The notes beneath the pieces were generated by a model. The model saw only the letters and a program-made list of their open reading frames with translations, had not been told where the DNA came from and searched no databases. A program made the translations under genes and the position numbers. 64,000 nt of DNA from Paludibacter sp. (lineage in GTDB: Bacteria > Bacteroidota > Bacteroidia > Bacteroidales > Paludibacteraceae), in assembly GCA_019163375.1 (NCBI GenBank), contig JAFLKK010000005.1, positions 283,511 to 347,510 of the forward strand, written 5' to 3'. This document shows, one piece after another, positions 30,394 through 49,579 of the stretch (within the stretch, counting starts at the first letter, position 1; the number at the start of each line of letters is the position of its first letter).

Positions 30394-30433
30394 GAATTTC
30401 AATTAAAATATACATTTAAAATTAAATAAGAAT

Positions 30434-31213: not shown

Positions 31214-31331
31214 GTAGTTAGTTACGAGCTTGCCTGCACTAGGCAGGTTACAAGTCTTATTATCTTGAAGCTACTCTAAAATAATATCAATAATTATTTA
31301 TTATTACTTCAATTAGCGCAATAAAAAAGTT

Positions 31332-32462: not shown

Positions 32463-32484
32463 AATTCTTTTTCTCCTTTCAAAC

Positions 32485-32524
32485 AATCCTCGCTCACTTA
32501 ACCGGAGCGGGGATTTGTTTTTTT
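32485..32524 (+). terminator. Terminator after the DUF4861 gene
   Basis: AATCCTCGCTC (32485-32495) pairs with GAGCGGGGATT (32505-32515) with one wobble, then TGTTTTTTTT. It closes the kduI operon. Confidence 0.8.
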
Positions 32525-32541
32525 CATTCGGCTAAAATGCG

Positions 32542-32549
32542 TAATTTTG
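32542..32549 (+). promoter_or_regulatory. Putative -7 element for tsaB
   Basis: TAATTTTG, 31 bases before the ATG at 32581. A TTTG at 32514-32517 is 24 bases upstream, within the preceding terminator. Confidence 0.5.
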
Positions 32550-32580
32550 TACCATTGTTCAACTTCTTAACCCGATTAAA

Positions 32581-33261
32581 ATGATCATTCTACATATTGA
32601 AACATCAACCAACATATGTTCCATTGCCATAAGCGAGAACGGCCAGTGTATATTCACCAAATCCGATTCGGAAGGTATGAATCATGCAGCTTTACTCAGC
32701 GTTTTTATAGCCGAAGCTATGGAGTTTCTGAAAATATCGTCCCAAAAACCGGATGCCATTGCAGTGAGCAGTGGCCCCGGTTCATACACAGGTTTGCGAA
32801 TTGGAGTATCAACAGCCAAAGGAATTTGCTATGGCTTAGACATTCCGTTAATCGCTGTCAGCACACTGGAGGTACTGACTGCAAATGCGTTTCAAATTAC
32901 AGGAACAGCAACTAACTCACTGTTTTGCCCAATGATAGATGCCCGCAGAATGGAAGTATACGCTGCATTTTACAGTCAGGAAGGGATCATTCAACGTGAA
33001 ATTTCGGCCGATGTCATCGACGAAAATTCGTACAGCGAGATACTTGAGAATCACAGTGTTTATTTCTTCGGAAACGGTGCTGAGAAATGCAAAACAACGC
33101 TCACCCACCCCAACGCAAAATTTATTGACGGCATGTACCCATTGGCCCAAAACATGATCGTATTGGCCGAAAAAGCGTATGCCGAAAAGAAATTTGTAGA
33201 TGTAGCTTACTTTGAACCTTTTTATTTAAAAGAGTTTTATACCACTGCTGCTAAAATTTAA
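32581..33261 (+). CDS. tsaB: tRNA threonylcarbamoyladenosine biosynthesis protein TsaB
   Basis: A 226-residue protein of the ASKHA fold. The first strand and phosphate-like loop are ILHIETSTNICSIAI, and the conserved segment is VSSGPGSYTGLRIGVSTAKG, found in all TsaB proteins. It is the scaffold partner that dimerises with TsaD in the TsaBDE complex making t6A37 in tRNAs that read ANN codons. It has its own promoter and stands alone between the uronate locus and a tandem-repeat region. The full length matches other Bacteroidales TsaB. Confidence 0.95.
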   Translation: MIILHIETSTNICSIAISENGQCIFTKSDSEGMNHAALLSVFIAEAMEFLKISSQKPDAIAVSSGPGSYTGLRIGVSTAKGICYGLDIPLIAVSTLEVLTANAFQITGTATNSLFCPMIDARRMEVYAAFYSQEGIIQREISADVIDENSYSEILENHSVYFFGNGAEKCKTTLTHPNAKFIDGMYPLAQNMIVLAEKAYAEKKFVDVAYFEPFYLKEFYTTAAKI

Positions 33262-33313
33262 GTTTGCTGTCAGATTCAAAAACAAGCAGTTTGAAGTGGA
33301 CGTAAATACCTAT

Positions 33314-33567
33314 CGGATGTTTTTATAGGTACAACCCTCTAAAACATTCGACAAAGGATCTAAAAGATAGGATTTCGGATGTTTTTATAGGTACAACCTT
33401 CTAAAACATTCGACATAGGCTCTAAAAGATAGGATTTCGGATGTTTTTATGGGTATAACCTTCTAAAACACTCGGCATAGGCTCTAAAAGATAGGATTTC
33501 GGATGTTTTTATGGGTATAACCCTCTAAAACATTCGACATAGGGTCCAAAAGATAGGATTTCGAGTG
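33314..33567. repeat. 62-bp tandem array (four full units and a start of a fifth)
   Basis: CGGATGTTTTTAT starts at 33314, 33376, 33438 and 33500, exactly 62 bases apart, with a diverged fifth start at 33562. Units differ by a few bases. Each has an inverted pair AAAACATTCG / CGGATGTTTT across the unit junction, able to fold as RNA. It lies between tsaB and a TonB-domain gene; 33568-33696 beyond it shows nothing recognisable. Confidence 0.92.
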
Positions 33568-33696
33568 ATATATTGCAACTATACAAATACTTTCACAAGA
33601 AAAGAACTCGTTAGGACTATTTTTATCCCATTATCAAAATTGAGAATGAAAATGAGAAATGGTTGATGACTGAAATTACTTTAAAAGAAAACAAAC

Positions 33697-34158
33697 ATGA
33701 TAAATAGGTTGCACTCAATAGATAAGAAATTGAAAAGTCTAACTATTATTCTGACTACATTGTTTATGTGTTTCATCAGTTTGAATTGTTTCGGACAAGA
33801 ACAAGACACAACAATATATTTAAACCAGGACATTGAACCTGAGTTTAAATATGAAAACTGTTTAAACACGCCTGATGCTTGCAAGAATTTTTTTATCAAG
33901 AATTTCAAAATGCCCAAAATATTAGAAGCTAATGGTTATCATGGTGGAATTATAGTTTCGTTTATAGTCGAAAAGGACAGCTCAATAAGTCAAATTCGTT
34001 TGATTAGAGGAATGAGGGATGCTCTTGACAAATATGTCCTTGAAACAGTCAAAACAATGCGAAAATGGACTCCGGGATATATAAATGGAAAAAAAGTAAG
34101 AAGTCAAGTTATTTTACCTGTATCGCTTCGTTGGTTGTACGGCAACGGTGAGGAATAA
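33697..34158 (+). CDS. TonB C-terminal domain protein
   Basis: A 153-residue protein. An N-terminal hydrophobic stretch (LTIILTTLFMCFISLNCFGQ) looks like a signal peptide; the remainder holds a TonB C-terminal domain, with GGIIVSFIVEKDSSISQIRLIRG followed by a helix and MRKWTPGYINGKKV. Stand-alone periplasmic TonB_C domains are frequent in Bacteroidetes and bind peptidoglycan or partner proteins, but with no proline-rich linker and no ExbB/ExbD nearby this is unlikely to be the energy-coupling TonB. The gene follows a tandem repeat array and has no clear operon partner. Confidence 0.78.
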   Translation: MINRLHSIDKKLKSLTIILTTLFMCFISLNCFGQEQDTTIYLNQDIEPEFKYENCLNTPDACKNFFIKNFKMPKILEANGYHGGIIVSFIVEKDSSISQIRLIRGMRDALDKYVLETVKTMRKWTPGYINGKKVRSQVILPVSLRWLYGNGEE

Positions 34159-34694
34159 ACTAAAAAAAAGAATAATTTGGAATACTTGTCCTAGCGGAAA
34201 TATAATCATTACTTTCACAAAAGTGATGGTTGGTCGGTGGGACCTGCCTGCCGCAGACGAGTTCTCAATCCCACCGACTTGTATTCTTAGTATTTTTAAA
34301 GGTGCAGACACTCAACATACTCGCATTTAGAGCTACGAAATAGCTACCCATATAATCTAGTTGATAGCTATACTGTTTGAGTAATACTAACCGCACCGGT
34401 CGCAAAACTGGGCGGTTTTTTTTTGTGGCCTTACACCTAGCTGGGATGCTAACTTAATGTAGAGAAGTTTGAAAACATTATTTTTAATTACAATTTAAAA
34501 AAACTGAATAAATAGTTGGATGTATTAACTAAAATGCTTATGTTTGTAAAATCAAAATAAAGACTTAAAGATTTCTGGTATATCCGTTTAAAAACGAGTA
34601 CTAATAGCAAAAATACCAAAAAATAAAGTTTATATATGGTCACCAAGGTATAGATATAAGTTATTAACTGCCATTTTAAAACAGACAACCGATA
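34159..34694. other. Non-coding stretch with a hairpin and a terminator
   Basis: GTCGGTGGGA (34233-34242) and TCCCACCGAC (34269-34278) form a perfect 10-base stem enclosing a CCTGCCTGCCGCAGACGAG-type segment also seen near 31240 and 61350. The stretch from 34430 to 34694 is very AT-rich with no gene seen. Confidence 0.55.
34389..34424 (+). terminator. Terminator-like hairpin downstream of the TonB-domain gene
   Basis: AACCGC (34389-34394) pairs with GCGGTT (34412-34417), with a second inner pairing CCGGT/ACTGG, followed by nine T residues. It is 230 bases from the stop of the gene. Confidence 0.6.
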
Positions 34695-35345
34695 GTGAGA
34701 CAACAAAAGATTAGAGGATTTAATAGACGATTTCGAGACATAGAAATCTGGAGATTAGGGAATCTTGATTTGCGGCTTGATTTGATTGAAAGATACAATC
34801 GGGAATATGCAGAGATTAGCGTTCACCCGTGGTGTGACATTTCAACAATTAACAGTAAGATTCCAGAGCCAAAAGGGACAACAAAAAAATTAATGCTTAG
34901 TGGATTGCTTGATATTTATGAATCTTGGAAAGTTCGATTAGATAAATTAGGTAAACCTTATTACTTAAAGATTTGGCTCTTTGAACCAAGATTCTCTAAA
35001 TCACAAGTTGTTTGTGCAGTTGCTGATAAAATTAATTTCTATGAAAATAATTTCTTTAAACCAGATATTAAAAAACAACTAAACCCAAGCAATTACGGAC
35101 AATTAAGTGAGAGACTTCAAAAATTCGATTGGGATTACAGATTAGATGAGGACCATTATGACAATAATTTTATCGGAGAACCTGATTTATATGGTTCAAG
35201 ACAGGATTATGATGATTCAATAATTTGGTTTAATAGACATTTAAAAAAAACTCATAGATTGATTAAGTTCGACGAACCGATTGGAGAAGCAACTGAATCA
35301 TACTCTTTTAACCAAGGTGATTTATGGATTGGAGGACAAAAATAA
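34695..35345 (+). CDS. Hypothetical protein, GTG start
   Basis: I do not recognise this 216-residue protein. It is soluble, rich in Trp, Tyr and Asp, has no signal peptide, and starts with a basic stretch (RQQKIRGFNRRFRDIEIW). The centre (SWKVRLDKLGKPYYLKIWLFEPRFSKSQVVCAV) looks like a beta-alpha-beta unit, and the end is Asp/Tyr-rich. Base composition is AT-rich like its surroundings. No Shine-Dalgarno site supports the GTG at 34695. The repeat copy A begins directly after its stop codon, so it may be the cassette-like unit preceding the BspA-like gene. Confidence 0.6.
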   Translation: MRQQKIRGFNRRFRDIEIWRLGNLDLRLDLIERYNREYAEISVHPWCDISTINSKIPEPKGTTKKLMLSGLLDIYESWKVRLDKLGKPYYLKIWLFEPRFSKSQVVCAVADKINFYENNFFKPDIKKQLNPSNYGQLSERLQKFDWDYRLDEDHYDNNFIGEPDLYGSRQDYDDSIIWFNRHLKKTHRLIKFDEPIGEATESYSFNQGDLWIGGQK

Positions 35346-35356
35346 AATAAAAACGC

Positions 35357-35560
35357 CAGCTACGCACGCCTCGTATGCGAATTGACTGGCTGACCCCGAT
35401 AAATCGTGACAAGCTGTGCATTCCGCCAATTTTGCTCCTGCCTACCGCAAGCAAGCCAGCGTTTACTTTGTCGTTTCACGACAGCGAATTGAAAATCAGC
35501 GAAGCTAATGCTCCCTCCGTCAGCAAACCGCCAAATGCCCATAGCCTCGGTCGTTATGGG
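35357..35560. repeat. Dispersed attC-like repeat, copy A
   Basis: It shares TGGCTGACCCCGATAA (35386-35401), GACAAGCTGTGCATTCCG, and CAAATGCCCATAGCCTCGGT (35532-35551) with copies B and C, and ends CGTTATGGG. It is longer than the others because of an internal insert of about 75 bases between TTTTGCTCC and GCAAACCG. The left terminal TAAC is not preserved. Confidence 0.75.
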
Positions 35561-35601
35561 AAGGTGTAAAAAAAATGTAGTTTATATAGAATTAAAACAA
35601 T

Positions 35602-38600
35602 ATGAAAAGAAGAAAACCAATTTTATTGCTATTTTGCGTATTCCTTTTTACTTTAGGGCAAGCACAGGTCTCAAAAACCATAAATATTACAGCGGGAACT
35701 TTAGCAGGATCATTCACTCCGGCTGAGAATAAAACAATAACCAATCTTAAAGTAACAGGCACCTTAAACACGTCCGATTTCTTTTTTATTCGTGATAGTC
35801 TATCTGTTATTCAGATATTGGATTTGAGCGAAGCAAGGATTATTAGTCCGCTTGATACTATACCTGATAAGGCGTTTTACTATAAGAGAACGCTACAAAA
35901 AATATCTTTCCCAACCAATTTAGTCCGAATTGGATACGCAGCATTTTATAATTGTAGCGGATTGTTGTCGGTGGAAGTTCCGGCAACTGTTACTTCAATG
36001 GGAGCATCCGCATTTTCAAGTTGTGGTCTCAAATCTGTGATATTGCCTCCAACTAAGATTTCTTATTATGGATGGGCCTTTGACAATTGCGATTCTTTAG
36101 TTACTGCAACCACACCATATACAAATGATGGTGGTAACATATTTATGGGTAGTAATAACTTACGAACTATCATAGTGCCTGAAGGAGTAACGGCTATTAA
36201 GGCAAGTGCTTTTTATCAGTTATCGAGCATGACTAATATTAAACTTCCTTCAACATTAACTTCTATTGGAACTCAGGCTTTTTATAATTGTACAGCTCTT
36301 GATTCAATTACAATACCCGAAGGAGTTACTTCTATTGAGGATGGTGCATTTTGGGAATGCAATAAAATGAAATCGGTTAGGTTGCCCAAATCGTTAGTCA
36401 CCATTAAAAGCACAGGGTTTGCACATTGCCGTTCGTTAACTTCAATTGAAATACCTTCAACCGCAACTGCTATTGAAAGTGAGGCTTTCAGAGCTTGTAC
36501 AGGATTGGTCACTGTCACGGCAGCTTCGGGGACTGCCACTTACGGTGGAAATATATTCAGTTATTGTACAAATATAAAAAACATCATTATACCTGAAGGA
36601 ACTTCGTCAATTAAGAACAATGCATTCAGCAGTAATTTTGGATCTGTAACTTCCATCAAAATACCTGTTTCGGTTAAAAGCATCGGCGATCAAGCTTTCT
36701 CGGGCTGTAGCGGTATTGTATCTATTTCTATACCTGATAGTGTAAGTTCTATCGGGGCGAATGCTTTTTCGGGTTGCACCGGATTAAAATCAGTAACAAT
36801 ACCGAATTTAGTTACAAAACTGGGAATTTATTCATTCCAGAATTGCAGTAATCTAAGTTCAGTAACCTTGCCTACGTCTTTGACAAGCATTGATGAAGGA
36901 GTCTTTTCGGGTTGTGTAAAGCTACCAACTGTCAGTTTTCCCAACTCACTGGTTTCTTTAGGTAATTCAGCTTTTTCAGGTTGTACTCTACTTGATTTAA
37001 TCACTATTCCGTCTACAGTGAACTCTATAGGCCAATCTTGCTTTTCAGGTTGTATATCGTTAAAAGCTATTGTCATTCCGTCATTAGTAAGTACGATTAA
37101 TACGACTGTATTTTCAGGATGTACCGGTTTGACTTCTGTTCAATTTCCGAGCTCCCTTACCTCAATAGCCTATCAGGCATTTTTAGGTTGTAACGCTCTT
37201 ACTTCTATCACTATTCCTGCCAATACAACGATTAGCTATAACGCTTTTCAAAATTGTAAAGGACTTGTGCAGGCTACTACACCTTATGCTTATAATTCGG
37301 GGAATATCTTTGCCGGATGTGATAATCTGAAGACCATATTAATTCCTTCGGGAACAGTTTCAATATGTAGTAATGGATTTTATAATTGTAGCACGTTGGA
37401 TTCAATTAGCATCCCTTCATCAGTTCAAACAATTGGTAATTATGCTTTTTACGGCTGCAGTAGTTTGAAGAAATTTAATCTGCCAAAGAATCTACTAACT
37501 ATTGGCGACTATGGTTTGGCAAATTGCAGCAGTCTGACTTCGATAAGTTTACCTACAACAATTAGTGCTATTAATTCCAATGCATTTCAGGGATGTACAG
37601 GTTTAACTTCAATTTCAGTCAACAACTCTTTTCCTATAGACCTGACACAATCTACTTCAGTATTTAATAATGTAAACAAAACCATTTGTCAGTTGAATGT
37701 ACCTTATGGAACAAAATTACGGTATAGTGCCACTAATCAATGGAGCGATTTCGCTAATATAGTTGAAAAATCAACCGGTATTTTTGTCAGTTCCAATAAA
37801 GCTGAACTTTCAGCTAACCCGGGCAGTACTATTACTGTTGATGTAAAAGCCAATGTAGCCTGGACAGCCAGTTCCAATCAAACATGGTTAACAGTGAGTC
37901 CTGCTTCCGGTACAAGTGATAACATACTTACTTTTACCTCGGATAATACTCAGATTACGACTGTCCGAAATGCAGTAGTCACAGTGTCTGCTCCCGGCTT
38001 CATTTCTCAAACTGTTGTAGTATACCAAAAACTAGCTCCAAAAACAATAAGTATTTCAGCAGGGGGACTTTCAGCCGCTTTGACAGCCAATGAGCTAAGT
38101 TCCCTTTCAACACTTATTGTTACCGGCACCATGGATGCACGTGATTTTAAAACTATGCGCGATAGTATGCCTCAGTTGACTGATTTAGATTTAACGGGAG
38201 TTTCAATTGCAGCTTATACCGGAATCAATGGTACTTATCCTAATTCGATAACTTATCCTGCCAATATTTTTCCAATATATGCTTTTTATAATGGCACTAC
38301 AGCAATTGGGAAAACAACCTTGAAGACTGTAAAATTACCATCAACAATTACCTCAATAGGTTCTAATGCATTTGGAGGTTGTAGTGGGTTAACTACTACA
38401 ATATCGATCCCTTCATCAGTGGTTTCAATAAGCAGTAATGCTTTTTATAATTGTACAGGGCTAAGCTCAATTACCATTCCCACATCGGTAAGTACCATTG
38501 GTAGTTATGCTTTTTACAACTGTACGGGATTGACTTCAATTATCGTGAATTCAAGCTATCCGATTGACATAACCAGCCCTACTTATGTGTTTTATAATAT

Positions 38601-41600
38601 AAATAAAACGACCTGTTTATTATATGTGCCTTATGGATCAAAATCACTTTATGCTGCTTTAACCCAATGGAAAGACTTTGCTAACATAGTGGAAAATGCA
38701 ACAGGTTTTATACTAAGTACAAATAAATTAAAATTACCTTATAATACAGGAAGTAGCGTTAATGTTGATTTAAAGTCCAATGTGGCCTGGACAGTCAGCT
38801 CTGACCAACCGTGGCTTACGGTGAATCCTGGTTCAGGCTCGGGGAACTACACACTGGTAGTCACTGCTAAGACAAATACTACTTCAACCACAAGAAAAGC
38901 GATTATCACTGTGTCAGCTCCCAGTTGTATCTCTCAAATAGTAGAAGTTACACAAAACATAGCCCCAAAAGCTATCGATATCACTGCAGGAGGATTATCT
39001 ACAGTTCTCACAACTGAAGAGCTCGGTTCACTTTCATCGCTAACTCTAACAGGTACAATGGATGCCCGTGATTTTAAAACTTTACGGGATAAAATGCCTT
39101 TGTTGACCAATCTTGATTTTACTGGCACTTCAATCCTCGCTTATACGGGAACAGATGGTACATATCCGTCTTCAACTTCAACAATCTATCCTGCTAATAC
39201 TATTCCACAATATGCATTTTACGGAAAAACAATTTTAAAATCGGTTGTAATACCATCAACAGTTACTGCTATTGGGAATTATGTATTTCAAAGTTGTAGC
39301 AGTTTGACTTCTTTTATCATTCCGTCAACCGTTAATTCAATAGGAGCCTATACTTTTTATGGTTGTACCGGTTTAACATCAATCTATTCAAACTCCTCTT
39401 ATCCCATTGATTTAAGTAATTCCTATAGTGTGTTTTATAATGTAAATAAAACTACCTGTACTCTGAATGTGCCCTATAAAGCAAAAACACTTTATGCTGC
39501 TGCTTATCAATGGAGTGATTTTAACCAAATTGTCGAAAGTACGCAAGGGTTTATGACCGGTACAGATAAAGTGAAAATTGCTTATATGAAAGAATCAACC
39601 GGAACTGTTGATGTTGTAGCTAATGTGGGCTGGACAGTAACTTCAGACCAACCATGGCTTACCGTAAGCCCTGCTTTAGGTTCAGGCGATTCAAAGTTGA
39701 CTTTTACAGCAGATAAAAATGATTCAACAGCCCGACGTTACGCTAAAGTAATTGTTACTTCTCCCGGTTATGGCTCTCAGATTATTACTGTTACCCAAAC
39801 AGGCTCCCCGAAAACGATCAACATCATAGCAGGAAGTTTATCAAAAAGCTTAACTGCCGAAGAACTGAGTTCAATAGCCGACCTCAATATTACCGGGACA
39901 ATGGATGCCCGCGATTTCAGAACTCTCAGAGACAAAATGCCTGAATTAGCCCGATTGGATATTAGTAAGGTTAGTATTGCTGCATTTAACGGTACTGGTG
40001 GAACGTATGATTTTAGTGCGGGATATTCAGCCAATGCTGTACCACCAAGTGCATTTTATACATACTCTCCGGAATGGTCAAAAACAAGTCTGATCTCCAT
40101 TAAATTGCCATCAACATTAAAGTCTATTGGCTCTTCCGCTTTTCAGTGTTGTACAGGTTTGACTTCAGTTTATATTAACTCTGCTTATCCAATAGATTTT
40201 ACTACCTCAGGCGATCCATTTTCTAAAACAAATAAAGCCGGTTGTACACTTTATGTACCTTATGCAACGAAACCTTACTTCTCAGCTGCCGCAGTATGGA
40301 AAGACTTTATGAATATAGTGGAAAATGCTCAGGGATTTTTAGTTAGTCAAAGGGCAATCAAATTTACTGCTTCTACTATAAGTAAAAGTATCTCAATTGC
40401 AGTTAAAAGCAATGTGGCATGGACGACACAATCAAATCAACCATGGTTGGTTACAAGTAGCAATGACAGCATAATAACACTTACTGCTGAAGCCAATCCT
40501 GCTGATACAATACGAGAAGCAACAGTTACAGTATCTTCACCGGGATTTGATTCACACTTTGTGCTTGTAACGCAAGCCGCTGCTCCCCGAAAAGTTACAG
40601 CCGGCGGGCTTTCATCTGTTTTGACTTCTACTGAACTAAGTACTGTAACTGATTTAGCGTTGATGGGAACAGTGGATGCTCGCGATTTTAAAACCATGCG
40701 GGATAATATGCCGGCATTAGCGAATATAGATTTGAGTGCAGTAAATGTAAGTGCTTATGAAGGTCCGAATTGTGATCTATGGGGAGATAGTGGTATAAAA
40801 AAATATCCTGCCAACGAAATCCCGCGTCAGGCATTTTATATGTCAAAAAAAATAAAATCAATGATAATGCCCCAAACGGTTACATCTGTTGGTGAATATG
40901 CTTTTGGTTATACTTCATTATCTTCTGTTTTATTTGCCAAGAGCATTAGGTCTATCGGAATTTATGCTTTTAGTGTTTGTACTGATTTAAATTCTGTTAC
41001 TTTGCCTGATTCACTTATTTCTATAGGCGATGAGGCTTTTTCAGGAAGTGGTTTAAGTGGACAATTATATTTTCCTTCAACATTAAAGAAAATAGGTGCA
41101 TCTGCATTTTATTATTGTTCTGGACTAACAGGTTTATTGACAATCCCTGCATCTGTAGATTCAATTGGTGGTTCTTCATTCAATAATTGCTATGGTTTAT
41201 CCTCTTTAATTGTTAATTCTGTTGATCCAATTATCGGAACAAATGCATTTTCAAGTTGCTCAGGGTTGAAATCAATCACATTACCTACAACACTTACAAC
41301 AATTGGTGAAGGTGCTTTTGGGTATTGTGTGAATTTGAAATCAATCACTCTACCACCATCATTAAAGCTTATCGGCTCAAAAGCATTTCAGGTTTGCATG
41401 GGAATTACTTCCATCGATTTTCCGGCATCTCTTACAACAATTGGTGATTATACTTTTACAAATTCCGGATTGATTAATCTAACCATACCTTCTACGCTAA
41501 CTAATATTGGTACATATGCATTTTCATCATGTGCGAACCTGAACTCTGTTTCGTTTCCTTCAACACTAAAAAAGATAAGTAATGGACTGTTTTACAATTG

Positions 41601-43128
41601 CAAGAACTTAAATTCGATAACTTTTCCTTCTGGATTAGAAGCAATTGGAAATGATGTTTTTAACAACTGTACTGCTTTGACTAATATCGAACTTCCTATT
41701 TCGTTGACAAAAATTGGTGATTATGCTTTTCAGTATTGTACGGGTTTAAACTATATAAACTTGCCCATTAACCTAACTTCAATCGGATCCTGTTCATTTT
41801 CATCATGTACAGGATTGACTGGAATTGTAATCCCTAATTTAGTTAGTTCAGTAGGAAGTAGTGCTTTTAGTAATTGTACAGGATTACAAAACATAACTTT
41901 TGGAAATTCACTAATTGGAATTGCTGATTATACATTTAATAGTTGTTCGGCTCTGATCAATATTACGATTCCAAATACCATTAAATCTATTGGAGATGAT
42001 GCATTTAATTCTTGTACCGGACTGACAACAATAACAATTCCGAATTCTGTAACTTCAATTGGCAATGAGGCATTCAAGTATTGCAATAGCCTGAACAAAG
42101 TGATAATTCCAAATTCAATTACGTCAATTAAATCAGGAACATTTAGTAATTGTACCGGATTGAAGAATATTGATATTCCTAATTCCATTCAAACAATTGG
42201 AAATTCTGCTTTTTCGCATTGTACGAGCTTAAATAATCTGACGATTCCTAATTCGGTTACTTATATTACTGATGCAGCATTTGAGTATTGTAGCTCACTT
42301 ACAAGTGTTATTATACCGAACTTAATTACTACTTTAAAATATAATACATTTAGTCATTGCACAAAACTCAGTAGCGTTACAATACCGAATTCATTAAAAA
42401 CAACAGAAGCTTCGGTTTTTGAATATTGTACCGCACTGACCAACATCAATCTTCCAGAATCCCTGACTAATATAGGTCACTATTTCTTTTCAAATTGTAC
42501 GGCATTATCCAGTATTATAATTCCAAATTCAGTGACTGTAATAAATACAGGGGCATTTGAATACTGTAGTAGTCTTAAAAGTGTTACTATTGGAAATTCG
42601 GTAAAAAGTATTGAAGATGGAGTATTTAAAAACTGTAATTCCTTACCAAGTATCTCTATACCAGCATCTGTTACATCTTTAGGATCAGCTTCATTCTCCT
42701 GTTCTGGTTTAAACTCAATTTACGTTTATTCCCAAACTCCGATTCAGGTTTATAGTTGGATTTCAGTTTTTGAGAATGTAAATAAGAGTATATGTATGCT
42801 TTATGTACCGGTTGGTTCAAAGTCTCTTTATAAGTCAGCATATCTTTGGCAAGATTTTGTTAATATAATTGAATCGCCTACAGCAGTTCCAGCATTAAAT
42901 GCAGAAAAAATTTGTATTTATCTAAATCCGGTTTCAGAATCATTAAGTATTCATGGAATAGAAGGAACAAGTACCATTTCAATTTATGACTTGAATGGTA
43001 GAGCTTTGCTTTGCAAACAAGTACAACTAGATGAAAATATCTCAATAAGTAATTTTCCAACAGGATTGTATATCGTTCGAATTATTACGAAGGAAGGAAG
43101 GATAGAAAAGAAAGTTTTGAAGAACTGA
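35602..43128 (+). CDS. Giant BspA-like leucine-rich-repeat protein with BACON domains and T9SS signal
   Basis: A 2508-residue secreted protein. Residues 1-21 are a signal peptide (ending GQAQ). About residues 60-720 and 1720-2400 are dense BspA-type leucine-rich repeats (LRR_5) of roughly 23 residues with a recurring FSGCTGLKSVTIP pattern. Between lie four modules, each with a BACON-type domain (about 725-810, 1035-1120, 1313-1400, 1577-1660; core WTVSSDQPWLTV), then a conserved segment SAGGLSxxLTxxEL...MDARDFKTMRD and a short LRR block. The last 80 residues are a type A type IX secretion signal (YDLNGRALL, GLYIVRI). It should be exported through the outer membrane and mediate adhesion or ligand binding. 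Flanked by repeat copies A and B. Confidence 0.93.
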   Translation: MKRRKPILLLFCVFLFTLGQAQVSKTINITAGTLAGSFTPAENKTITNLKVTGTLNTSDFFFIRDSLSVIQILDLSEARIISPLDTIPDKAFYYKRTLQKISFPTNLVRIGYAAFYNCSGLLSVEVPATVTSMGASAFSSCGLKSVILPPTKISYYGWAFDNCDSLVTATTPYTNDGGNIFMGSNNLRTIIVPEGVTAIKASAFYQLSSMTNIKLPSTLTSIGTQAFYNCTALDSITIPEGVTSIEDGAFWECNKMKSVRLPKSLVTIKSTGFAHCRSLTSIEIPSTATAIESEAFRACTGLVTVTAASGTATYGGNIFSYCTNIKNIIIPEGTSSIKNNAFSSNFGSVTSIKIPVSVKSIGDQAFSGCSGIVSISIPDSVSSIGANAFSGCTGLKSVTIPNLVTKLGIYSFQNCSNLSSVTLPTSLTSIDEGVFSGCVKLPTVSFPNSLVSLGNSAFSGCTLLDLITIPSTVNSIGQSCFSGCISLKAIVIPSLVSTINTTVFSGCTGLTSVQFPSSLTSIAYQAFLGCNALTSITIPANTTISYNAFQNCKGLVQATTPYAYNSGNIFAGCDNLKTILIPSGTVSICSNGFYNCSTLDSISIPSSVQTIGNYAFYGCSSLKKFNLPKNLLTIGDYGLANCSSLTSISLPTTISAINSNAFQGCTGLTSISVNNSFPIDLTQSTSVFNNVNKTICQLNVPYGTKLRYSATNQWSDFANIVEKSTGIFVSSNKAELSANPGSTITVDVKANVAWTASSNQTWLTVSPASGTSDNILTFTSDNTQITTVRNAVVTVSAPGFISQTVVVYQKLAPKTISISAGGLSAALTANELSSLSTLIVTGTMDARDFKTMRDSMPQLTDLDLTGVSIAAYTGINGTYPNSITYPANIFPIYAFYNGTTAIGKTTLKTVKLPSTITSIGSNAFGGCSGLTTTISIPSSVVSISSNAFYNCTGLSSITIPTSVSTIGSYAFYNCTGLTSIIVNSSYPIDITSPTYVFYNINKTTCLLYVPYGSKSLYAALTQWKDFANIVENATGFILSTNKLKLPYNTGSSVNVDLKSNVAWTVSSDQPWLTVNPGSGSGNYTLVVTAKTNTTSTTRKAIITVSAPSCISQIVEVTQNIAPKAIDITAGGLSTVLTTEELGSLSSLTLTGTMDARDFKTLRDKMPLLTNLDFTGTSILAYTGTDGTYPSSTSTIYPANTIPQYAFYGKTILKSVVIPSTVTAIGNYVFQSCSSLTSFIIPSTVNSIGAYTFYGCTGLTSIYSNSSYPIDLSNSYSVFYNVNKTTCTLNVPYKAKTLYAAAYQWSDFNQIVESTQGFMTGTDKVKIAYMKESTGTVDVVANVGWTVTSDQPWLTVSPALGSGDSKLTFTADKNDSTARRYAKVIVTSPGYGSQIITVTQTGSPKTINIIAGSLSKSLTAEELSSIADLNITGTMDARDFRTLRDKMPELARLDISKVSIAAFNGTGGTYDFSAGYSANAVPPSAFYTYSPEWSKTSLISIKLPSTLKSIGSSAFQCCTGLTSVYINSAYPIDFTTSGDPFSKTNKAGCTLYVPYATKPYFSAAAVWKDFMNIVENAQGFLVSQRAIKFTASTISKSISIAVKSNVAWTTQSNQPWLVTSSNDSIITLTAEANPADTIREATVTVSSPGFDSHFVLVTQAAAPRKVTAGGLSSVLTSTELSTVTDLALMGTVDARDFKTMRDNMPALANIDLSAVNVSAYEGPNCDLWGDSGIKKYPANEIPRQAFYMSKKIKSMIMPQTVTSVGEYAFGYTSLSSVLFAKSIRSIGIYAFSVCTDLNSVTLPDSLISIGDEAFSGSGLSGQLYFPSTLKKIGASAFYYCSGLTGLLTIPASVDSIGGSSFNNCYGLSSLIVNSVDPIIGTNAFSSCSGLKSITLPTTLTTIGEGAFGYCVNLKSITLPPSLKLIGSKAFQVCMGITSIDFPASLTTIGDYTFTNSGLINLTIPSTLTNIGTYAFSSCANLNSVSFPSTLKKISNGLFYNCKNLNSITFPSGLEAIGNDVFNNCTALTNIELPISLTKIGDYAFQYCTGLNYINLPINLTSIGSCSFSSCTGLTGIVIPNLVSSVGSSAFSNCTGLQNITFGNSLIGIADYTFNSCSALINITIPNTIKSIGDDAFNSCTGLTTITIPNSVTSIGNEAFKYCNSLNKVIIPNSITSIKSGTFSNCTGLKNIDIPNSIQTIGNSAFSHCTSLNNLTIPNSVTYITDAAFEYCSSLTSVIIPNLITTLKYNTFSHCTKLSSVTIPNSLKTTEASVFEYCTALTNINLPESLTNIGHYFFSNCTALSSIIIPNSVTVINTGAFEYCSSLKSVTIGNSVKSIEDGVFKNCNSLPSISIPASVTSLGSASFSCSGLNSIYVYSQTPIQVYSWISVFENVNKSICMLYVPVGSKSLYKSAYLWQDFVNIIESPTAVPALNAEKICIYLNPVSESLSIHGIEGTSTISIYDLNGRALLCKQVQLDENISISNFPTGLYIVRIITKEGRIEKKVLKN

Positions 43129-43261
43129 CAATAGATGAATACATTGGAAGTCTTAAATTACAACTCTTTGTTAAAAAACGGGATGAACAGGAATCACTCA
43201 TCGGGTGGTAAACAGAAATAAAGACAAATGAAGTAACTAATTTTTAATACAAATAATTTGG

Positions 43262-43386
43262 AATAACCATAGAATTCCTCGTTCATTGGCTGGCCGACCC
43301 CGATAAGTCGGGACAAGCTGTGCATTCCGTTGGTTTTGCTCCCGCAAACCGCCAAATGCCCATAGCCTCGGTCATTAGCGGTTATT
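43262..43386. repeat. Dispersed attC-like repeat, copy B
   Basis: The terminal inverted repeats AATAACC (43262-43268) and GGTTATT (43380-43386) bound the element. The inside includes TGGCTGGCCGACCCCGATAA, the hairpin CCGAC/GTCGG, and CAAATGCCCATAGCCTCGGT (43353-43372), all shared with copies A and C. It lies between the BspA-like gene and the lipoprotein gene. Confidence 0.82.
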
Positions 43387-43434
43387 GTAGAAAAAATGAA
43401 AAACCAATATTGTTCAACTAAAACAGATAAAATT

Positions 43435-43821
43435 ATGAAAAGAGACTGGAAAAGAAAAATTATTGGAGGACTTTGTTTAACCTCAGTTGCATTTGTATTT
43501 CAAGCTTGCTATGGTACTCCACAAGACTTTGGGAATGACTTATTAGTTGAGGGATTAGTAAAATCAAAAAAGACTGGTCTTCCTATCAAAGGAATTAAGG
43601 TTTCGGTTGACGAAAGAGTACAATATGCGAATACTGATGAAAATGGGAAGTTCTCATTATACATTGATAAACTTCAACATGCAAATATCAAATTTAAAGA
43701 TGTAGACTCTACCCAGAATATCTGGTTTTCCAATAAAGACACATTGATCACAATCAATGAATCGGTACTTACGAGTAAGCAACCTAAAGTCTATTTGAAC
43801 ATTGAACTGGAAAATAAGTAA
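43435..43821 (+). CDS. Radical SAM-associated putative lipoprotein (rSAM/lipoprotein system)
   Basis: The frame opens at 43396, but the ATG at 43435 places a normal lipoprotein signal at the N terminus (KIIGGLCLTSVAFVFQAC; lipobox FQAC), giving 128 residues. The mature protein begins CYGTPQDF, matching the C-x-YGTP start that I recall for the lipoproteins paired with a Bacteroidetes radical SAM enzyme (rSAM/lipoprotein system). The rest is a small beta-sandwich, carboxypeptidase-regulatory-like domain (GLPIKGIKVSV, NTDENGKFSLYI). The radical SAM gene begins immediately after its stop, so the two are translated together. The lipoprotein is the obvious candidate substrate. Confidence 0.85.
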   Translation: MKRDWKRKIIGGLCLTSVAFVFQACYGTPQDFGNDLLVEGLVKSKKTGLPIKGIKVSVDERVQYANTDENGKFSLYIDKLQHANIKFKDVDSTQNIWFSNKDTLITINESVLTSKQPKVYLNIELENK

Positions 43822-44886
43822 ATGGTTACAATGCTAAAACAAGCTTTATTTAGGGTATTCAGAAAATTAGAAACAAAACACCATGAACTCAATTATCTTT
43901 TTTGGGAATGTACAACAAGGTGTAATCTGAATTGTAGACATTGCGGAAGTGATTGTTCAAAAGATAGTTTTTATAAAGACATGCCTCTTGACGACTTTTT
44001 AAAAGCTCTTGATACGATTGAATCTCCTTCTGAGCACTTCACTGTAGTACTGACCGGAGGAGAACCTCTTTTGCGAAAAGATATTGAACTTTGCGGTCGG
44101 GAAATCAGAAAACGTGGCATGCGTTGGAGTATGGTTTCCAATGGTTATTTGTATAACAACGAGAAACATATATCTTTGCTGAATGCCGGACTTGGAGCAC
44201 TTACAATAAGCATTGATGGTTTAGAAAGCTCGCATAACTGGCTAAGGAATAATGACAAGAGTTTTGAACGGGTTGATATTGCAATTGGTCTTGCTGCAAG
44301 TTCTTCACGACTTAACTTTGATGTGGTGACGTGCGTAAATAAACGCAACTTTCAAGAACTGGAAGAAATACGAACATATCTAATTCAGAAAGGAGTAAAA
44401 GCATGGCGACTATTTACAATCGTTCCCATTGGAAGAGCAAAAGAGGATGATGAAATGTTTTTGACAGATCATCAATTTAGAGAGTTGATGGACTTTATCA
44501 GTGAATCAAGAACAAGAAAAGATATTGACGTAAAATTTAGTTGTGAAGGTTTTGTTGGCGAGTACGAATCGAAAGTACGTGACTCGAATTTCTTCTGTCG
44601 TGCAGGTATAAATATTGGCTCGATATTAATTGACGGCTCAATTTCTGCTTGTCCGAACATTGACCGAACATTTTCACAAGGAAATATCTACAAAGACAAT
44701 TTTTTTTCTGTTTGGCAGACAAAGTACGAGTTATTCAGAGACAGAAGTTGGACGAAAACTGGAAAGTGCACCGAATGTAAGGATTATAAAAACTGTCAGG
44801 GAAATGGATTTCATTACTGGCATGGCGAAAAGAAAAATGTACTCGTTTGTCATAACGAACGACTAAAGAAAACAACAAATTGCTAA
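43822..44886 (+). CDS. Radical SAM/SPASM enzyme of the rSAM/lipoprotein system
   Basis: A 354-residue protein. The radical SAM motif is CNLNCRHC (CxxxCxxC) at about residues 36-43, followed by the GGEPL glycine-rich strand near residue 78. The C-terminal part is a SPASM-like domain with cysteines in FFCRAG, SACPN, GKCTECKDYKNCQGNGFHYWHG and VCHNE, enough for auxiliary iron-sulfur clusters. SPASM enzymes usually modify peptides. The start at 43822 directly abuts the lipoprotein stop (a second ATG is at 43831), so the pair is a tight operon and the likely job is modification or maturation of the lipoprotein. Its stop codon lies inside the left end of repeat copy C. Confidence 0.9.
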   Translation: MVTMLKQALFRVFRKLETKHHELNYLFWECTTRCNLNCRHCGSDCSKDSFYKDMPLDDFLKALDTIESPSEHFTVVLTGGEPLLRKDIELCGREIRKRGMRWSMVSNGYLYNNEKHISLLNAGLGALTISIDGLESSHNWLRNNDKSFERVDIAIGLAASSSRLNFDVVTCVNKRNFQELEEIRTYLIQKGVKAWRLFTIVPIGRAKEDDEMFLTDHQFRELMDFISESRTRKDIDVKFSCEGFVGEYESKVRDSNFFCRAGINIGSILIDGSISACPNIDRTFSQGNIYKDNFFSVWQTKYELFRDRSWTKTGKCTECKDYKNCQGNGFHYWHGEKKNVLVCHNERLKKTTNC

Positions 44887-44944
44887 CAAACGCTTTGTTC
44901 ATTGGCTGTCTGACTGACAAATGCCCATAGCCTCGGTTGTTAGC
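44882..44944. repeat. Dispersed attC-like repeat, copy C (short form)
   Basis: Perfect 8-base terminal inverted repeats GCTAACAA (44882-44889) and TTGTTAGC (44937-44944). It retains GTTCATTGGCTG and CAAATGCCCATAGCCTCGGT (44918-44937) but lacks the central part of copies A and B, giving a 63-base element, a typical attC length. Confidence 0.82.
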
Positions 44945-44968
44945 CGCATATTAGAAAAGAAACAGACA

Positions 44969-45964
44969 ATGAAACAAGTACTTACGATAACTTTACTTTT
45001 AGTTTTAACGCTAGCAACTTTCGGGCAAACGAAGACAGCAAAAGACTATGGATTCATTCATTTACAGTTTGATTACAAATCAGATAAGGTGGACATTTTG
45101 ATAAAATCAAAAAAAGGAGACGAAAACAAACGGAAACCATTGTTCTTTTTTTGTCAGGGAAGTTTACCTAAACCATTAATAAAATACGATGGAAAAGGTA
45201 TTTACGGAGTCTTTTCATTTAATCCTGATAGTTTGGCAATTAAGTATCACTTAGTAATAGTTGGTAAGCCGTATATACCCTTAATTATGAACGTCAAAGA
45301 ACTGAGCAAAAGCTTTGACTTCATTGACAGCACCGGACATTATCCAAAACAGTATTCTGATAGAAATCTGTTGAACTATTATGTTGACAGAAATCTGAAA
45401 ATTATTAAATACCTACAAAGACTAAGTTGGGTTTCGAATAAACAACTTGTTGTATCCGGGCATTCTGAAGGAAGTACAGTAGCTGCAAAAATGGCAATTA
45501 GCTCCCATTTGGTGACTCATTTAATTTATTCTGGTGGTAATCCAATGGGGCGAATTATGTCAATTATACAACAAGACAGAGCTACTGAAAATGATAGTGT
45601 ACAAAGTGCGGAAAATGACATTGAATACTGGCAAAATGTGGTTCAAAACAAAACGAATATGGATGCGACACACGGCGACAGCAATAAAGCTACCTATGAA
45701 TTTTCGACCCCACCAATTGAGTATTTGAGGAAAATGAAAATCCCGGTACTTGTCTGTTATGGAACAAAAAATTGGTGCGCACCATTTGTCGACTTTATGA
45801 GAGTTGATTTTATACGAAAAGGAAAAACTAACTTTCAATTCAATCCATATATTGGAACTGAACATAATTATTTCCCATTGACGAAAGAAAACAAACCAAA
45901 TTACGATTTGTTTAATTGGGATAAAGTTGCTAACGATTGGCTGAAATGGTTAAACGAGAAATAA
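44969..45964 (+). CDS. Secreted alpha/beta hydrolase
   Basis: The frame extends upstream into repeat copy C, but the ATG at 44969 starts a proper signal peptide (KQVLTITLLLVLTLATFGQ), giving 331 residues. The nucleophile elbow is VVSGHSEGSTVAAKMA (GHSEG, Ser nucleophile), and the C-terminal GTEHNYFPL supplies the probable catalytic His; an Asp lies in the CYGTKNWCAPFVDF segment. The fold is that of dienelactone-hydrolase or prolyl-oligopeptidase-like enzymes, acting in the periplasm. The substrate is unknown. It looks like the third unit bounded by the dispersed repeat; no repeat is seen after it. Confidence 0.83.
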   Translation: MKQVLTITLLLVLTLATFGQTKTAKDYGFIHLQFDYKSDKVDILIKSKKGDENKRKPLFFFCQGSLPKPLIKYDGKGIYGVFSFNPDSLAIKYHLVIVGKPYIPLIMNVKELSKSFDFIDSTGHYPKQYSDRNLLNYYVDRNLKIIKYLQRLSWVSNKQLVVSGHSEGSTVAAKMAISSHLVTHLIYSGGNPMGRIMSIIQQDRATENDSVQSAENDIEYWQNVVQNKTNMDATHGDSNKATYEFSTPPIEYLRKMKIPVLVCYGTKNWCAPFVDFMRVDFIRKGKTNFQFNPYIGTEHNYFPLTKENKPNYDLFNWDKVANDWLKWLNEK

Positions 45965-46056
45965 AATCGTTGGCCTATTCCACCCTCTCGGACTTTTGCA
46001 CCTGAGAGATACGTAAATAGAAAAAACTGATTTCACAAACATTTATTTTTAAAAAC

Positions 46057-46650
46057 ATGACTAAAAAGGTACTCTTATTTTTGGCTCAGGGGTTTGAAGC
46101 GTACGAAGCTAGCACCTTTACCGATGTATTTGGTTGGAGCAGGGAATCAGGGCTGGAATCTGTTGATATGATTACTACCGCCTTACGACCAACGATAAAA
46201 TGCTATTGGAATCTGATTGTACAACCGGAAATGGCCTTCGATCAGATAAACGTTGATGACTTTGATGCGTTGGCTATTCCGGGTGGCGCGGGTGAAGCCG
46301 GCTTTTACGAAGATGCATATGACGAACGGTTTCTTGATCTGATAAGGGAATTCGATAAAAAGGGAAAGTGTATTGCTTCCATTTGTGTGGGAGCTTTACC
46401 CATTGGCAAAGCAGGTGTATTAAAAAACCGGAATGCTACTACCTGGGATTTGAATGAAGGGGCAAGACGAAAACAGTTAGCTGATTTCGGAGCAAATGTG
46501 CAGGATAAGCAAATGGTTGTCGACAAAAATATTATTACATCAACCGGTCCTGCCACCAGCATTGATGTGGCTTTTCAATTGCTTGAGATGCTAACGGATA
46601 TTCAAAACGTAAATGAGATAAAAAGAAATATGCGCTTTATAGTGGATTGA
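46057..46650 (+). CDS. DJ-1/PfpI family protein
   Basis: A 197-residue protein of the DJ-1/ThiJ/PfpI fold. The nucleophile Cys is in ASICVGALPIGKAG, preceded by AIPGGAGEAGFYED and a Glu in the first helix region (FEAYEAS), the usual triad neighbourhood. The family includes deglycase/chaperone, glyoxalase III and isonitrile hydratase-type enzymes. It precedes a DapB-like gene by 45 bases (same strand) and may share its transcript. A specific activity cannot be given. Confidence 0.88.
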   Translation: MTKKVLLFLAQGFEAYEASTFTDVFGWSRESGLESVDMITTALRPTIKCYWNLIVQPEMAFDQINVDDFDALAIPGGAGEAGFYEDAYDERFLDLIREFDKKGKCIASICVGALPIGKAGVLKNRNATTWDLNEGARRKQLADFGANVQDKQMVVDKNIITSTGPATSIDVAFQLLEMLTDIQNVNEIKRNMRFIVD

Positions 46651-46695
46651 TATTGTTATCATTCTATGAATAGCAAAAAGAATAATAAGTACAAA

Positions 46696-47382
46696 ATGGA
46701 GAAAATAAAAATATTTGTTGCCGGTTCGGGAAAGTTAGCCAATGCGATACTAAGTTCAGGTTTGTCGTTTCAATCGTGCGAAATACGAAAATGGGATACA
46801 TACTACCAAACGCTTAATGAAAAGGCAATATTGGTGCACGCAGGTTCAGGGAGGCAACTAAAGGAATGTATGGAATTCTGCGCCAGAACAAAAACTATAT
46901 TTATTGAACTGTCCACCGGCTTGGAAACAGAAACACTGAATGCTGATTTTCCGCTTATCATTTGTCCCAACACGTCCATCCTGGTGTTGAAAACATTAAA
47001 TATGCTCAAAGCAAATGGTCGGAACTTTGAAAATTATTCGATTTCCATCACTGAATCTCATCAATCAACAAAAAAGACTGAACCCGGAACAGCCTATGCT
47101 TTTGCTAATGCGTTAAAATTTCCGGTCGACAAAATCGTATCAGTACGCAATCCTGAGATGCAACAAAACATGATAGGAATACCCGAAGAATACCTGGGAA
47201 AACATGCTTATCATAAAATTAGTATCAGTGATGGAAGCGACGAGCTAACACTAGAAACAAAGGTATTGGGACATGATTCTTACGCAAAAGGCGTTAAACT
47301 GATAATCGAAACGGCTTTGATTAATAATTTGGAAAATAAAAGATATACGGTGCTGGAGTTGATTGAGAAGAATATGCTGTGA
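46696..47382 (+). CDS. Dihydrodipicolinate reductase-like protein
   Basis: The frame opens at 46666; the ATG at 46696 (MEKIKIFVAGSGKLANAIL) fits the Rossmann start and is preferred, giving 228 residues. The nucleotide loop is VAGSGKLANAI, and the C-terminal half has SITESHQSTKKTEPGTAYAFA, which resembles the E-x-H-x-x-x-K-x-D-x-P-S-G-T motif of DapB, with the catalytic His and Lys at the right spacing. The protein is shorter than DapB and the DAP genes are absent here, so it is more likely a paralogue than the lysine-pathway enzyme. It follows the DJ-1 family gene. Confidence 0.65.
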   Translation: MEKIKIFVAGSGKLANAILSSGLSFQSCEIRKWDTYYQTLNEKAILVHAGSGRQLKECMEFCARTKTIFIELSTGLETETLNADFPLIICPNTSILVLKTLNMLKANGRNFENYSISITESHQSTKKTEPGTAYAFANALKFPVDKIVSVRNPEMQQNMIGIPEEYLGKHAYHKISISDGSDELTLETKVLGHDSYAKGVKLIIETALINNLENKRYTVLELIEKNML

Positions 47383-47465
47383 AATGGCCTGCACTCAGGA
47401 GGCTTTGCTCCCACTTTCAGCTCGGTCTAAAGTTGTTGAGATAGTGGATGTAATCTTATTTTTAT

Positions 47466-47473
47466 TAAATTTG
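47466..47473 (+). promoter_or_regulatory. Putative -7 element for the T9SS protein gene
   Basis: TAAATTTG, 55 bases before the ATG at 47528; no well-spaced -33 TTTG. Confidence 0.45.
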
Positions 47474-47527
47474 CAGGCGCTATAAATAAACGCTATAGTT
47501 TGCTAACCCTAAATTATTTATAAAGAT

Positions 47528-48979: not shown

Positions 48980-48988
48980 ACAATCAAA

Positions 48989-49447
48989 ATGATGAGAAGA
49001 AAGGATAGAGCAATAACAGAAGATGAAGCCATTGAAATACTGATAAAAGGTGAACACGGAATACTCTCGATGTGTACTCCGGAGAACGAAGGCTATGGAA
49101 TACCGCTGAACTACGTTTTGGACAATCATCAAATTTACTTTCATTGTGCTGCTACAGGTTCGAAACTTGATTATTTACGCACCAACAATAAAGTTTCTTT
49201 TTGCGTGGTTGGAAATACGACCATAATACCCTCAGACTTTGGAACGCTCTACGAAAGCACTATTGTATCAGGCATAACATCAGAAGTGGATGGAAATGAA
49301 AAAAGGGATGCATTAATCAAAATCATTGAAAAATATTCTGTCGATTTCATCAAAGAAGGAAATGAATATATTGATAAATTATATGACAGAGTGTGCGTTA
49401 TAAAACTTTCAATACAGTCTATTACCGGCAAAGCAAAGAGGCAATAG
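48989..49447 (+). CDS. Pyridoxamine 5'-phosphate oxidase family protein (NimA-like)
   Basis: A 152-residue flavin-binding split-barrel protein. The start RRKDRAITEDEAIEIL, GILSMCTPENEGYGIPLNYVL and IYFHCAATGSKLDYLRTNNKVSFCVVG are the family signature; it resembles the Nim-type nitroimidazole reductases and related FMN proteins of Bacteroidetes. There are ATG codons in tandem at 48989 and 48992. The gene lies 9 bases after the T9SS protein but has no functional tie to it. Whether it reduces nitroimidazoles cannot be told; generic PPOX-family is the safe label. Confidence 0.87.
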   Translation: MMRRKDRAITEDEAIEILIKGEHGILSMCTPENEGYGIPLNYVLDNHQIYFHCAATGSKLDYLRTNNKVSFCVVGNTTIIPSDFGTLYESTIVSGITSEVDGNEKRDALIKIIEKYSVDFIKEGNEYIDKLYDRVCVIKLSIQSITGKAKRQ

Positions 49448-49548
49448 ATTCTACGTGATTAACATTTTCAGACTATTGCTATTTCTATCAGGTTCACGTT
49501 AATTTATGATAAATAAGGCTATTAAGGCTAATTTTATTCGTATCAGTA

Positions 49549-49579
49549 TTTGATAAGCAGAAGATAGGCACTACATTTG
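49549..49579 (+). promoter_or_regulatory. Promoter of the serine hydrolase gene
   Basis: TTTG (49549-49552), 19 bases, TACATTTG (49572-49579): the best consensus promoter in the window. The ATG is 84 bases downstream. Confidence 0.75.

What the first reader, a model, noticed from the sequence alone, without database searches (positions are those of the whole stretch)
35346..44968. Three copies of an attC-like repeat delimit cassette-like units without an integrase
Copies A (35357-35560), B (43262-43386) and C (44882-44944) share TGGCTG- and CAAATGCCCATAGCCTCGGT segments in one orientation. B and C each end in inverted repeats that match within the copy but not between copies (AATAACC/GGTTATT; GCTAACAA/TTGTTAGC), while the triplets AAC on the left and GTT on the right are constant. 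That covariation is the hallmark of folded attC sites recognised by structure. Each separates one complete unit: BspA-like gene; lipoprotein plus rSAM; alpha/beta hydrolase. The rSAM stop codon lies in the left end of copy C, as cassette stops often do. I propose a cassette array lacking an integrase gene (CALIN-like), or an unnamed Bacteroidetes element that moves genes in the same manner.
Basis: partly seen in the sequence, partly recalled or inferred. Interest (0 to 1): 0.78.

Follow-up and report, generated by a model that had tools for sequence, protein, structure and literature searches.

The report
Bacteroidota integron cassettes with unrecognised integrase
The three repeats are worn recombination sites of an integron, a gene-capturing device, and related bacteria carry such arrays headed by an unusual, apparently undescribed integrase that usual definitions of integrons would miss.

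Summary
The three repeats are real. They belong to an attC-like family found in about ten clusters in this genome and in 33 of 48 genomes of its genus (apparently Paludibacter). The units between sites behave like integron cassettes: the first bases of a unit (GTTA...) complement the last bases of the same unit (...TAAC), not the other end of the same site. Of 8 bases, 5.20 match within units, 2.98 within sites, 2.96 at random; 0 of 10,000 permutations reach this. A cassette shared by two genomes starts exactly at GTT in both. In the window only copy C still folds; A and B are decayed.

This genome shows no integron integrase. Relatives carry a tyrosine recombinase that lacks the IntI-specific insertion and bears HARP-like N-terminal modules. 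In five arrays it lies upstream on the same strand and the first cassette starts 126-243 nt after its stop codon. A motif-free test finds chains of three or more cassettes downstream of it in 14 of 32 loci, upstream in 0 of 68. That this enzyme moves the cassettes is inferred. I read it as an undescribed integron class of Bacteroidota, the window holding an integrase-less remnant.

The parts
35359..35560 (+). Copy A: decayed attC-like site; left end CTACGCACGC (35360-35369), right box GTTA at 35553-35556; starts unit 1
   Evidence: right half matches the family, left end degenerate, no outer arm pairs
35553..43267 (+). Unit 1 (cassette): BspA-type LRR/BACON protein with Por-secretion tail, ORF 35602-43128 (2508 aa)
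   Evidence: ends GTTATGGG... / ...GGAATAAC match 7 of 11
43260..43385 (+). Copy B: decayed attC-like site; left TAAC 43264-43267, right box mutated to ATTA at 43374-43377
43374..44887 (+). Unit 2 (cassette): small lipoprotein-like protein with weak carboxypeptidase-regulatory-like match (ORF 43396-43821, or from 43435) plus radical SAM protein (43822-44886)
   Evidence: ends ATTAGC... / ...GCTAAC match 7 of 11
44880..44949 (+). Copy C: best kept, short attC-like site (TAAC 44884-44887, GTTA 44939-44942) that folds on the bottom strand
   Evidence: complete site, 2 mismatches; 18 pairs between outer 30 bases
44939..45964 (+). Unit 3: alpha/beta-hydrolase-like protein (44969-45964); no right-hand site found, array ends here
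   Evidence: Abhydrolase_5 and BAAT_C, both under the curated cut-off
34893..35345 (+). Gene before copy A (probable remnant of a preceding unit); no Pfam match at E 0.01; its own start site not identified

Best explanation
The three copies are worn attC sites of an integron system of Bacteroidota. Units (mostly one gene) are excised as circles and inserted by cutting at G/TT in a site that folds from one DNA strand. The enzyme in relatives is a tyrosine recombinase of Xer/IntI type with N-terminal HARP-like modules (three in the long form) and without the IntI-specific insertion. Its gene lies upstream of the array on the same strand, and the first cassette starts at an attI-like point after its stop codon. 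In the window genome the integrase is absent and A and B no longer fold, so this is an integrase-less remnant. Shown: sites, arrays, unit boundaries, end complementarity, location of the recombinase. Inferred: that this recombinase does the cutting, that it grips the folded single strand, and that the HARP-like modules help in this.
For: Genus-wide site family (35 of 100 genomes, 33 of them among the 48 of the genus). End complementarity within units, 5.20 of 8 against 2.98 within sites and 2.96 at random, 0 of 10,000 permutations. Arm covariation: own arms score 16.6 against 13.9 when swapped between sites, 0 of 1000; bottom-strand arm-arm pairs 12.9 against 3.3 shuffled. Shared cassettes: one 82% identical in two genomes, similarity starting exactly at GTTAGCAGCC after an attC in one and after unrelated sequence in the other; another with a compensatory change at its two ends. 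Recombinase-attI-array order in L099, L101, L103, L104, L111, first cassette 237, 219, 243, 126 and 240 nt after the stop codon. Motif-free chains of 3 or more downstream of the recombinase: 14 of 32 loci with at least 3 kb, against 0 of 68 upstream and 2 of 160 local shuffles. HARP-like modules: best PDB profile hit is the SMARCAL1-type chain 4o66 (E 0.0013); beta-beta-alpha-beta-beta-alpha three times in the model.
Against: No experiment. Site-rich genomes such as G016 (one contig), G018, G022, G028 and G033 have no match to the recombinase at E 1e-60. Of 17 long-recombinase loci fetched (L099-L115), my Paludibacter regex saw sites in the expected place in 5 (L101 only a half site at the contig edge); 8 of the other 12 end within 1.3 kb downstream, but L107, L109, L110 and L113 have room and show at most isolated two-mismatch left-end hits. 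In single-contig genomes chains of 3 or more were found in 6 of 15 HARP-bearing loci, one doubtful (L302), and upstream in 1 of 20. HARP matches stay under Pfam's cut-off; another family, DUF5710, matches as often (20 of 49 proteins each). A strict module regex found no module in 37 of the 76 recombinases it could read, among them most flavobacterial forms, where I read one module by eye. RNAalifold on the MAFFT alignment gave no site fold. In this genome's own arrays outside the window the unit ends match at 3 to 10 of 11 positions, so several are decayed.
Confidence: 0.76

Rival explanations
1. Ordinary CALIN: the sites are true attC but were moved by a classical IntI in trans or in the past; the HARP-bearing recombinase near arrays is incidental.
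For: Classical IntI exists in Bacteroidales: G066 has one over the cut-off and a search with it listed 120 close relatives, two of them named Bacteroidales or Bacteroidia. CALINs are common and can be used by exogenous IntI (PMC9668308, passages).
Against: Only 1 of 100 genomes (this one included) has IntI over the cut-off, and it is in another family, whereas the HARP-bearing recombinase sits at the array head, with the first cassette starting after its stop codon, in several Bacteroidota groups.
Confidence: 0.15
2. The sites are targets of the housekeeping XerC/XerD, comparable to plasmid pdif modules.
For: The genome has Xer-like recombinases in frames of 312 and 316 aa; the recombinase part of the long protein is closest to Xer folds.
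Against: Most sites are 59-170 nt with a long covarying hairpin and one orientation per array, not short double-stranded sites; arrays are headed by a different recombinase.
Confidence: 0.05
3. Dispersed intergenic repeats (REP or MITE-like) without a role in gene movement.
For: Half sites and single copies occur away from arrays in this genome.
Against: Complementarity joins the two ends of a unit rather than of a repeat; a shared gene unit starts at the same base in two contexts; single orientation within each multi-site cluster of this genome.
Confidence: 0.03

Closest known systems
Classical integrons (IntI, attI, attC cassettes; sedentary chromosomal integrons)
   Same: Cassettes cut at G/TT, ends AAC/GTT, folded attC with covarying arms, mostly one gene per cassette in array orientation, attI-like start beside the integrase; the solved sequence closest to the recombinase is IntI4 2a3v (E 1.5e-38), only just ahead of XerA 5hxy (3.8e-37)
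   Different: Integrase lacks the IntI-specific insertion, has N-terminal HARP-like modules, lies outside the IntI clade in the tree, and its gene points the same way as the array with the attI-like point after its stop codon
Spirochaete integrons with reversed intI
   Same: Reverse orientation of intI relative to the usual layout (stated in a PMC9668308 passage)
   Different: Those integrases are counted as IntI in that paper; here the IntI domain is absent and HARP-like modules are present
CALIN (cluster of attC sites lacking integrase, IntegronFinder)
   Same: The window array, and the array contigs fetched, show no recombinase of this family
   Different: IntegronFinder was not run; A-B spacing is 7.9 kb and A and B are decayed; many of those contigs end within the array
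XerA/XerD-type recombinases (NF040815, archaeal Xer 4a8e)
   Same: Catalytic and core-binding domains; NF040815 is over its cut-off for 3 of 6 proteins
   Different: N-terminal HARP-like modules and association with cassette arrays

Membership tests
Integron (classical) | IntI with the additional domain around patch III | tested here: not met
   Own genome: best stretch 75 bits against cut-off 265. Relatives' recombinase 209-222 bits, two stretches with positions about 180-240 missing; insertion absent in 13 of 13 family members aligned with one classical IntI
Integron (classical) | Array of cassettes separated by attC sites in one orientation | tested here: met
   61 adjacent same-strand pairs in relatives, unit-wise complementarity; 58 of 61 ORFs on the array strand
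Integron (classical) | attC folds as a single strand with covarying arms and AAC/GTT ends | tested here: met
   For the family: 59 of 92 sites with at least 8 arm-arm pairs against 51 of 276 shuffles. In the window C met, A and B not met
Integron (classical) | attI beside the integrase where the first cassette starts | tested here: met
   By position only: five arrays (126-243 nt after the stop codon); first unit starts 38-102 nt after the recombinase match end in 9 loci, and 44 nt after the stop codon in L295 and L296
Integron (classical) | Integrase-catalysed recombination of attC | not testable with these tools
   Needs an assay
CALIN | At least two attC sites found by the attC covariance model without intI nearby | tested here: inconclusive
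   IntegronFinder/HattCI not available; no intI over the cut-off; own finder accepts only C as complete in the window
HARP domain (PF07443) | Score over Pfam's gathering cut-off | tested here: not met
   Among the six proteins best 21.2 bits against 25; 20 of 49 proteins and 10 of 33 modules match weakly (best E 4e-4 and 3e-4), DUF5710 20 of 49 and 6 of 33; PDB profile hit 4o66 E 0.0013. HARP-like, not a listed member
Xer/dif (pdif) modules | Short double-stranded core sites used by XerC/XerD (recalled) | tested here: not met
   Most sites 59-170 nt with hairpin, one orientation per array

The most novel reading that the evidence does not exclude
Bacteroidota (and a few bins labelled Cloacimonadota, Delongbacteria and Armatimonadetes) carry a second lineage of integrons whose integrase arose from a Xer-like recombinase separately from IntI and uses HARP-like modules, in place of the IntI-specific domain, to hold the folded single-stranded attC. 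It is widespread but has been missed because surveys define integrons by the IntI domain.
Probability: 0.58. Interest if true: 0.92.

Novelty: new variant of a known kind. Interest (0 to 1): 0.82.

Why it matters
One genome-wide survey found in Bacteroidetes only In0 elements and then one complete integron, in Salinibacter (PMC9024848, passages); classical IntI genes do occur in the phylum. If this reading holds, Bacteroidota have a gene-capturing system of their own, with an integrase that shows another way of recognising a folded DNA strand. A catalytic-domain relative occurs in 89 of 296 phylum genomes, though many of those hits do not extend over the HARP-like modules. It makes testable whether the IntI-specific domain is the only route to structure-specific recombination. 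A remnant of this recombinase family also lies next to tet(X3) on an Acinetobacter plasmid.

Tried and rejected
Rejected: B's AATAACC/GGTTATT as R boxes (displaced by 6 nt). Rejected: covariation within a copy as the main signal; it is between unit ends. Rfam on window 30000-50000 gave only a sub-threshold IS009 match inside the rSAM gene. RNAalifold on the MAFFT alignment A3 gave no site fold, I think because palindromes misalign; replaced by single-site folding and arm swapping. Empty site for the window array not resolved: genes 29551-32462 are syntenic in 13 of 13 relative loci fetched around that gene (13 of the 37 relatives with a match), gene 32581 in 8 of 13; none of the 13 has a complete attC there (isolated one-mismatch left halves in three), but downstream sequence differs, and gene 46666 matches in only 2 of 47 relatives, elsewhere. 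No cassette ends (up to 2 mismatches) were found round tet(X3). In the structure comparison the rows cover the recombinase part; no HARP structure is listed, which says nothing about the N-terminal modules. Tree: IntI is a separate clade (100/100) and none of 25 hand-picked HARP-bearing rows falls in it, but the HARP rows need 3 changes, so a single origin is not shown; the bootstrap had not settled; the 13 IntI rows are all close relatives of one Bacteroidales IntI. Paper searches (CC-licensed PMC only, no bioRxiv) listed no paper whose title or abstract describes this system; absence there is weak evidence.
Full report
What was checked. The window is G000:C7:283511-347510 of a 4.66 Mb genome in 29 contigs, 99.99% complete. 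The three copies exist in one orientation. A DNA search of the genome with copy B gave 18 matches, itself included, and a motif search added the cluster C1:455-456k (two of its 12 hits, on C3 and C4, look like chance); together they make about ten clusters on contigs C1, C7, C8 and C13. In each cluster with several sites the orientation is uniform. Reading these copies gives a consensus: nnnTAACACACGC..(hairpin)..CCCATAGCCTCGGTCGTTAnnn. The named protein relatives point to Paludibacter, Bacteroidales; the genome's own name was not seen.

The sites in relatives. The right-end motif (at most 1 mismatch) occurs in 35 of 100 genomes including this one, in 3 of 53 genera, up to 27 times per genome, and the reversed control pattern gave 0 in every row listed. 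From 60 fetched loci (L099-L118, L148-L187) a two-ended finder gave 102 complete sites and 61 adjacent same-strand pairs less than 6 kb apart. Cassettes have a median length of 1021 nt; the longest ORF is on the array strand in 58 of 61, opposite in 1, and absent (60 aa or more) in 2.

The key test. If units are excised as circles at G/TT, the start of a unit must pair with its own end. Over the 8 bases beyond GTTA the match is 5.20 within units, 2.98 within sites and 2.96 for random pairs; 0 of 10,000 permutations reached the observed sum. This is the behaviour expected of integron cassettes (recalled from the integron literature). In the window the ends of unit 1 match at 7 of 11 positions and those of unit 2 at 7 of 11; for five other neighbouring pairs of this genome the values are 3, 10, 8, 9 and 6 of 11, in keeping with decay.

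Folding. For 92 distinct sites the bottom strand has on average 12.9 pairs between the two outer arms against 3.3 in mononucleotide shuffles; at least 8 such pairs in 59 of 92 against 51 of 276. Own arms are more complementary than arms swapped between sites (16.6 against 13.9; 0 of 1000 permutations), so the arms covary. The alignment shows the variants (CATTGGC/GCCAATG, CACCTGC/GCAGGTG, CACAGGC/GCCCGTG). In the window C has 18 pairs between its outer 30 bases, A and B none.

Precise movement. A 0.7 kb cassette is 81-82% identical in G022 (L157) and G018 (L151). The similarity starts exactly at GTTAGCAGCC, preceded by an attC in the first and by unrelated sequence in the second. A second cassette shared by G022 (L158) and G028 (L161), 82% identical, differs at both ends in a compensating way (GTTAGCAGC/GCTGCTAAC and GTTACCAGC/GCTGGTAAC). 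These are two cases; I did not count how often shared cassettes occur.

The integrase. The integron-integrase model TIGR02249 gives nothing over its cut-off in this genome (best stretch 75 of 265 bits) and in 99 of 100 genomes of the relatives search, this one included. But a recombinase of about 545-575 aa stands at the head of arrays: L099 (G017), L101 (G015, half site at the contig edge), L103 (G037), L111 (G024) and L104 (G061, another family). In all five the first cassette starts with a GTTA 126-243 nt after the recombinase's stop codon, complementary to its own end. The long form with at least part of its N-terminal modules is found in 14 of 48 genus genomes (17 of 48 have some match at E 1e-60) and not in this genome. 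Of the 17 long-recombinase loci fetched (L099-L115), 5 show sites by the Paludibacter regex, 8 end within 1.3 kb downstream, and 4 (L107, L109, L110, L113) have room and show at most isolated two-mismatch left-end hits. Several site-rich genomes have no match to it.

Across the phylum. A scan with the recombinase alignment gave 80 named loci (the best of 571 candidates), nearly all Bacteroidota, among them isolates Arundinibacter roseus, Algoriphagus aquimarinus, Gillisia limnaea, Rufibacter, Arenibacter and Maribacter. A motif-free chain test (unit starts and ends complementary over 8 bases with at most 1 mismatch, next unit 12-260 nt later) found chains of 3 or more downstream in 14 of 78 loci, or 14 of the 32 with at least 3 kb downstream, upstream in 0 of 68 with at least 3 kb, and in 2 of 160 local shuffles; all 14 are labelled as Bacteroidota. 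The test is strand-symmetric, so strand is not independent evidence, and single members of a chain can be chance. In the ten loci printed the gaps are 38-245 nt and many are visibly palindromic. Contigs end within 1.5 kb downstream in 42 of 78 loci and upstream in 4 of 78, as repeated arrays would cause. In 20 loci from single-contig genomes (20 of the 23 such matches; prediction noted beforehand) chains of 3 or more occurred downstream in 6 of 15 loci with a HARP-like N-terminus by eye (L302 doubtful), in 0 of 4 without, and the one locus without an intact frame had 2; upstream in 1 of 20. So the association is supported but not universal. In 296 phylum genomes 89 have a match at E 1e-70; many of these hits do not extend over the HARP-like modules, and whether the modules are there was not checked beyond those 20.

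What is known. IntegronFinder 2.0 reports In0 and one complete integron in Bacteroidetes (PMC9024848, passages). IntIs are selected by the additional domain (PMC2426708; PMC9668308; passages). One tyrosine-recombinase survey notes that this insertion is not fully conserved in its integron-like subgroup (PMC8138268, passages), so some members of the present family may sit there unnoticed. NCBI's model NF040815, which passes its cut-off for 3 of 6 proteins tested, is described as 'site-specific tyrosine recombinase/integron integrase', and some database proteins bear that name, so the name exists as an automatic label. Ten paper searches (listed under Tried and rejected) listed no paper whose title or abstract describes the system.

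Verdict. The window holds an integrase-less, decayed stretch of three attC sites (two whole units and a third without a right-hand site). The larger finding is a Bacteroidota integron type with an integrase that bears HARP-like modules and lacks the IntI domain. The mechanism is inferred from anatomy and comparison; no recombination was shown.

Noticed in passing
L164 (two), L149, L166, L182: Five minimal sites close to TAACACACGCCTCGGTCGTTA (at most 2 mismatches) in which the whole hairpin is missing but both end boxes are kept. Unexplained.
   Followed up: partly
L294:6028-8049 (Acinetobacter indicus plasmid NZ_CP041297.1): A 221-aa remnant of the recombinase family (similar to residues 333-562, 72% identical) lies 189 nt upstream of tet(X3) on the same strand; matches of this family at E 1e-60 occur in 62 plasmid records, 50 of them Acinetobacter. 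Only this one record's neighbours were looked at; no cassette ends found round tet(X3) in it.
   Followed up: partly
L283-L293: Eleven IMG/VR viral contigs carry the exact attC right-end motif; whether phages carry cassettes was not examined.
   Followed up: no
window 33251-33622: Tandem repeat with a 62-nt spacing, inner copies 90-94% identical to the reference copy, outer ones 61-64%, upstream of the array region.
   Followed up: no
L116: Single-contig genome G016 holds an array of about a dozen attC sites but has no match to the long recombinase at E 1e-60.
   Followed up: partly
window 35553-43267: The first unit, 7.7 kb with a 2508-aa BspA-like gene, is very large for a cassette (median of 61 cassettes in relatives 1021 nt).
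   Followed up: no
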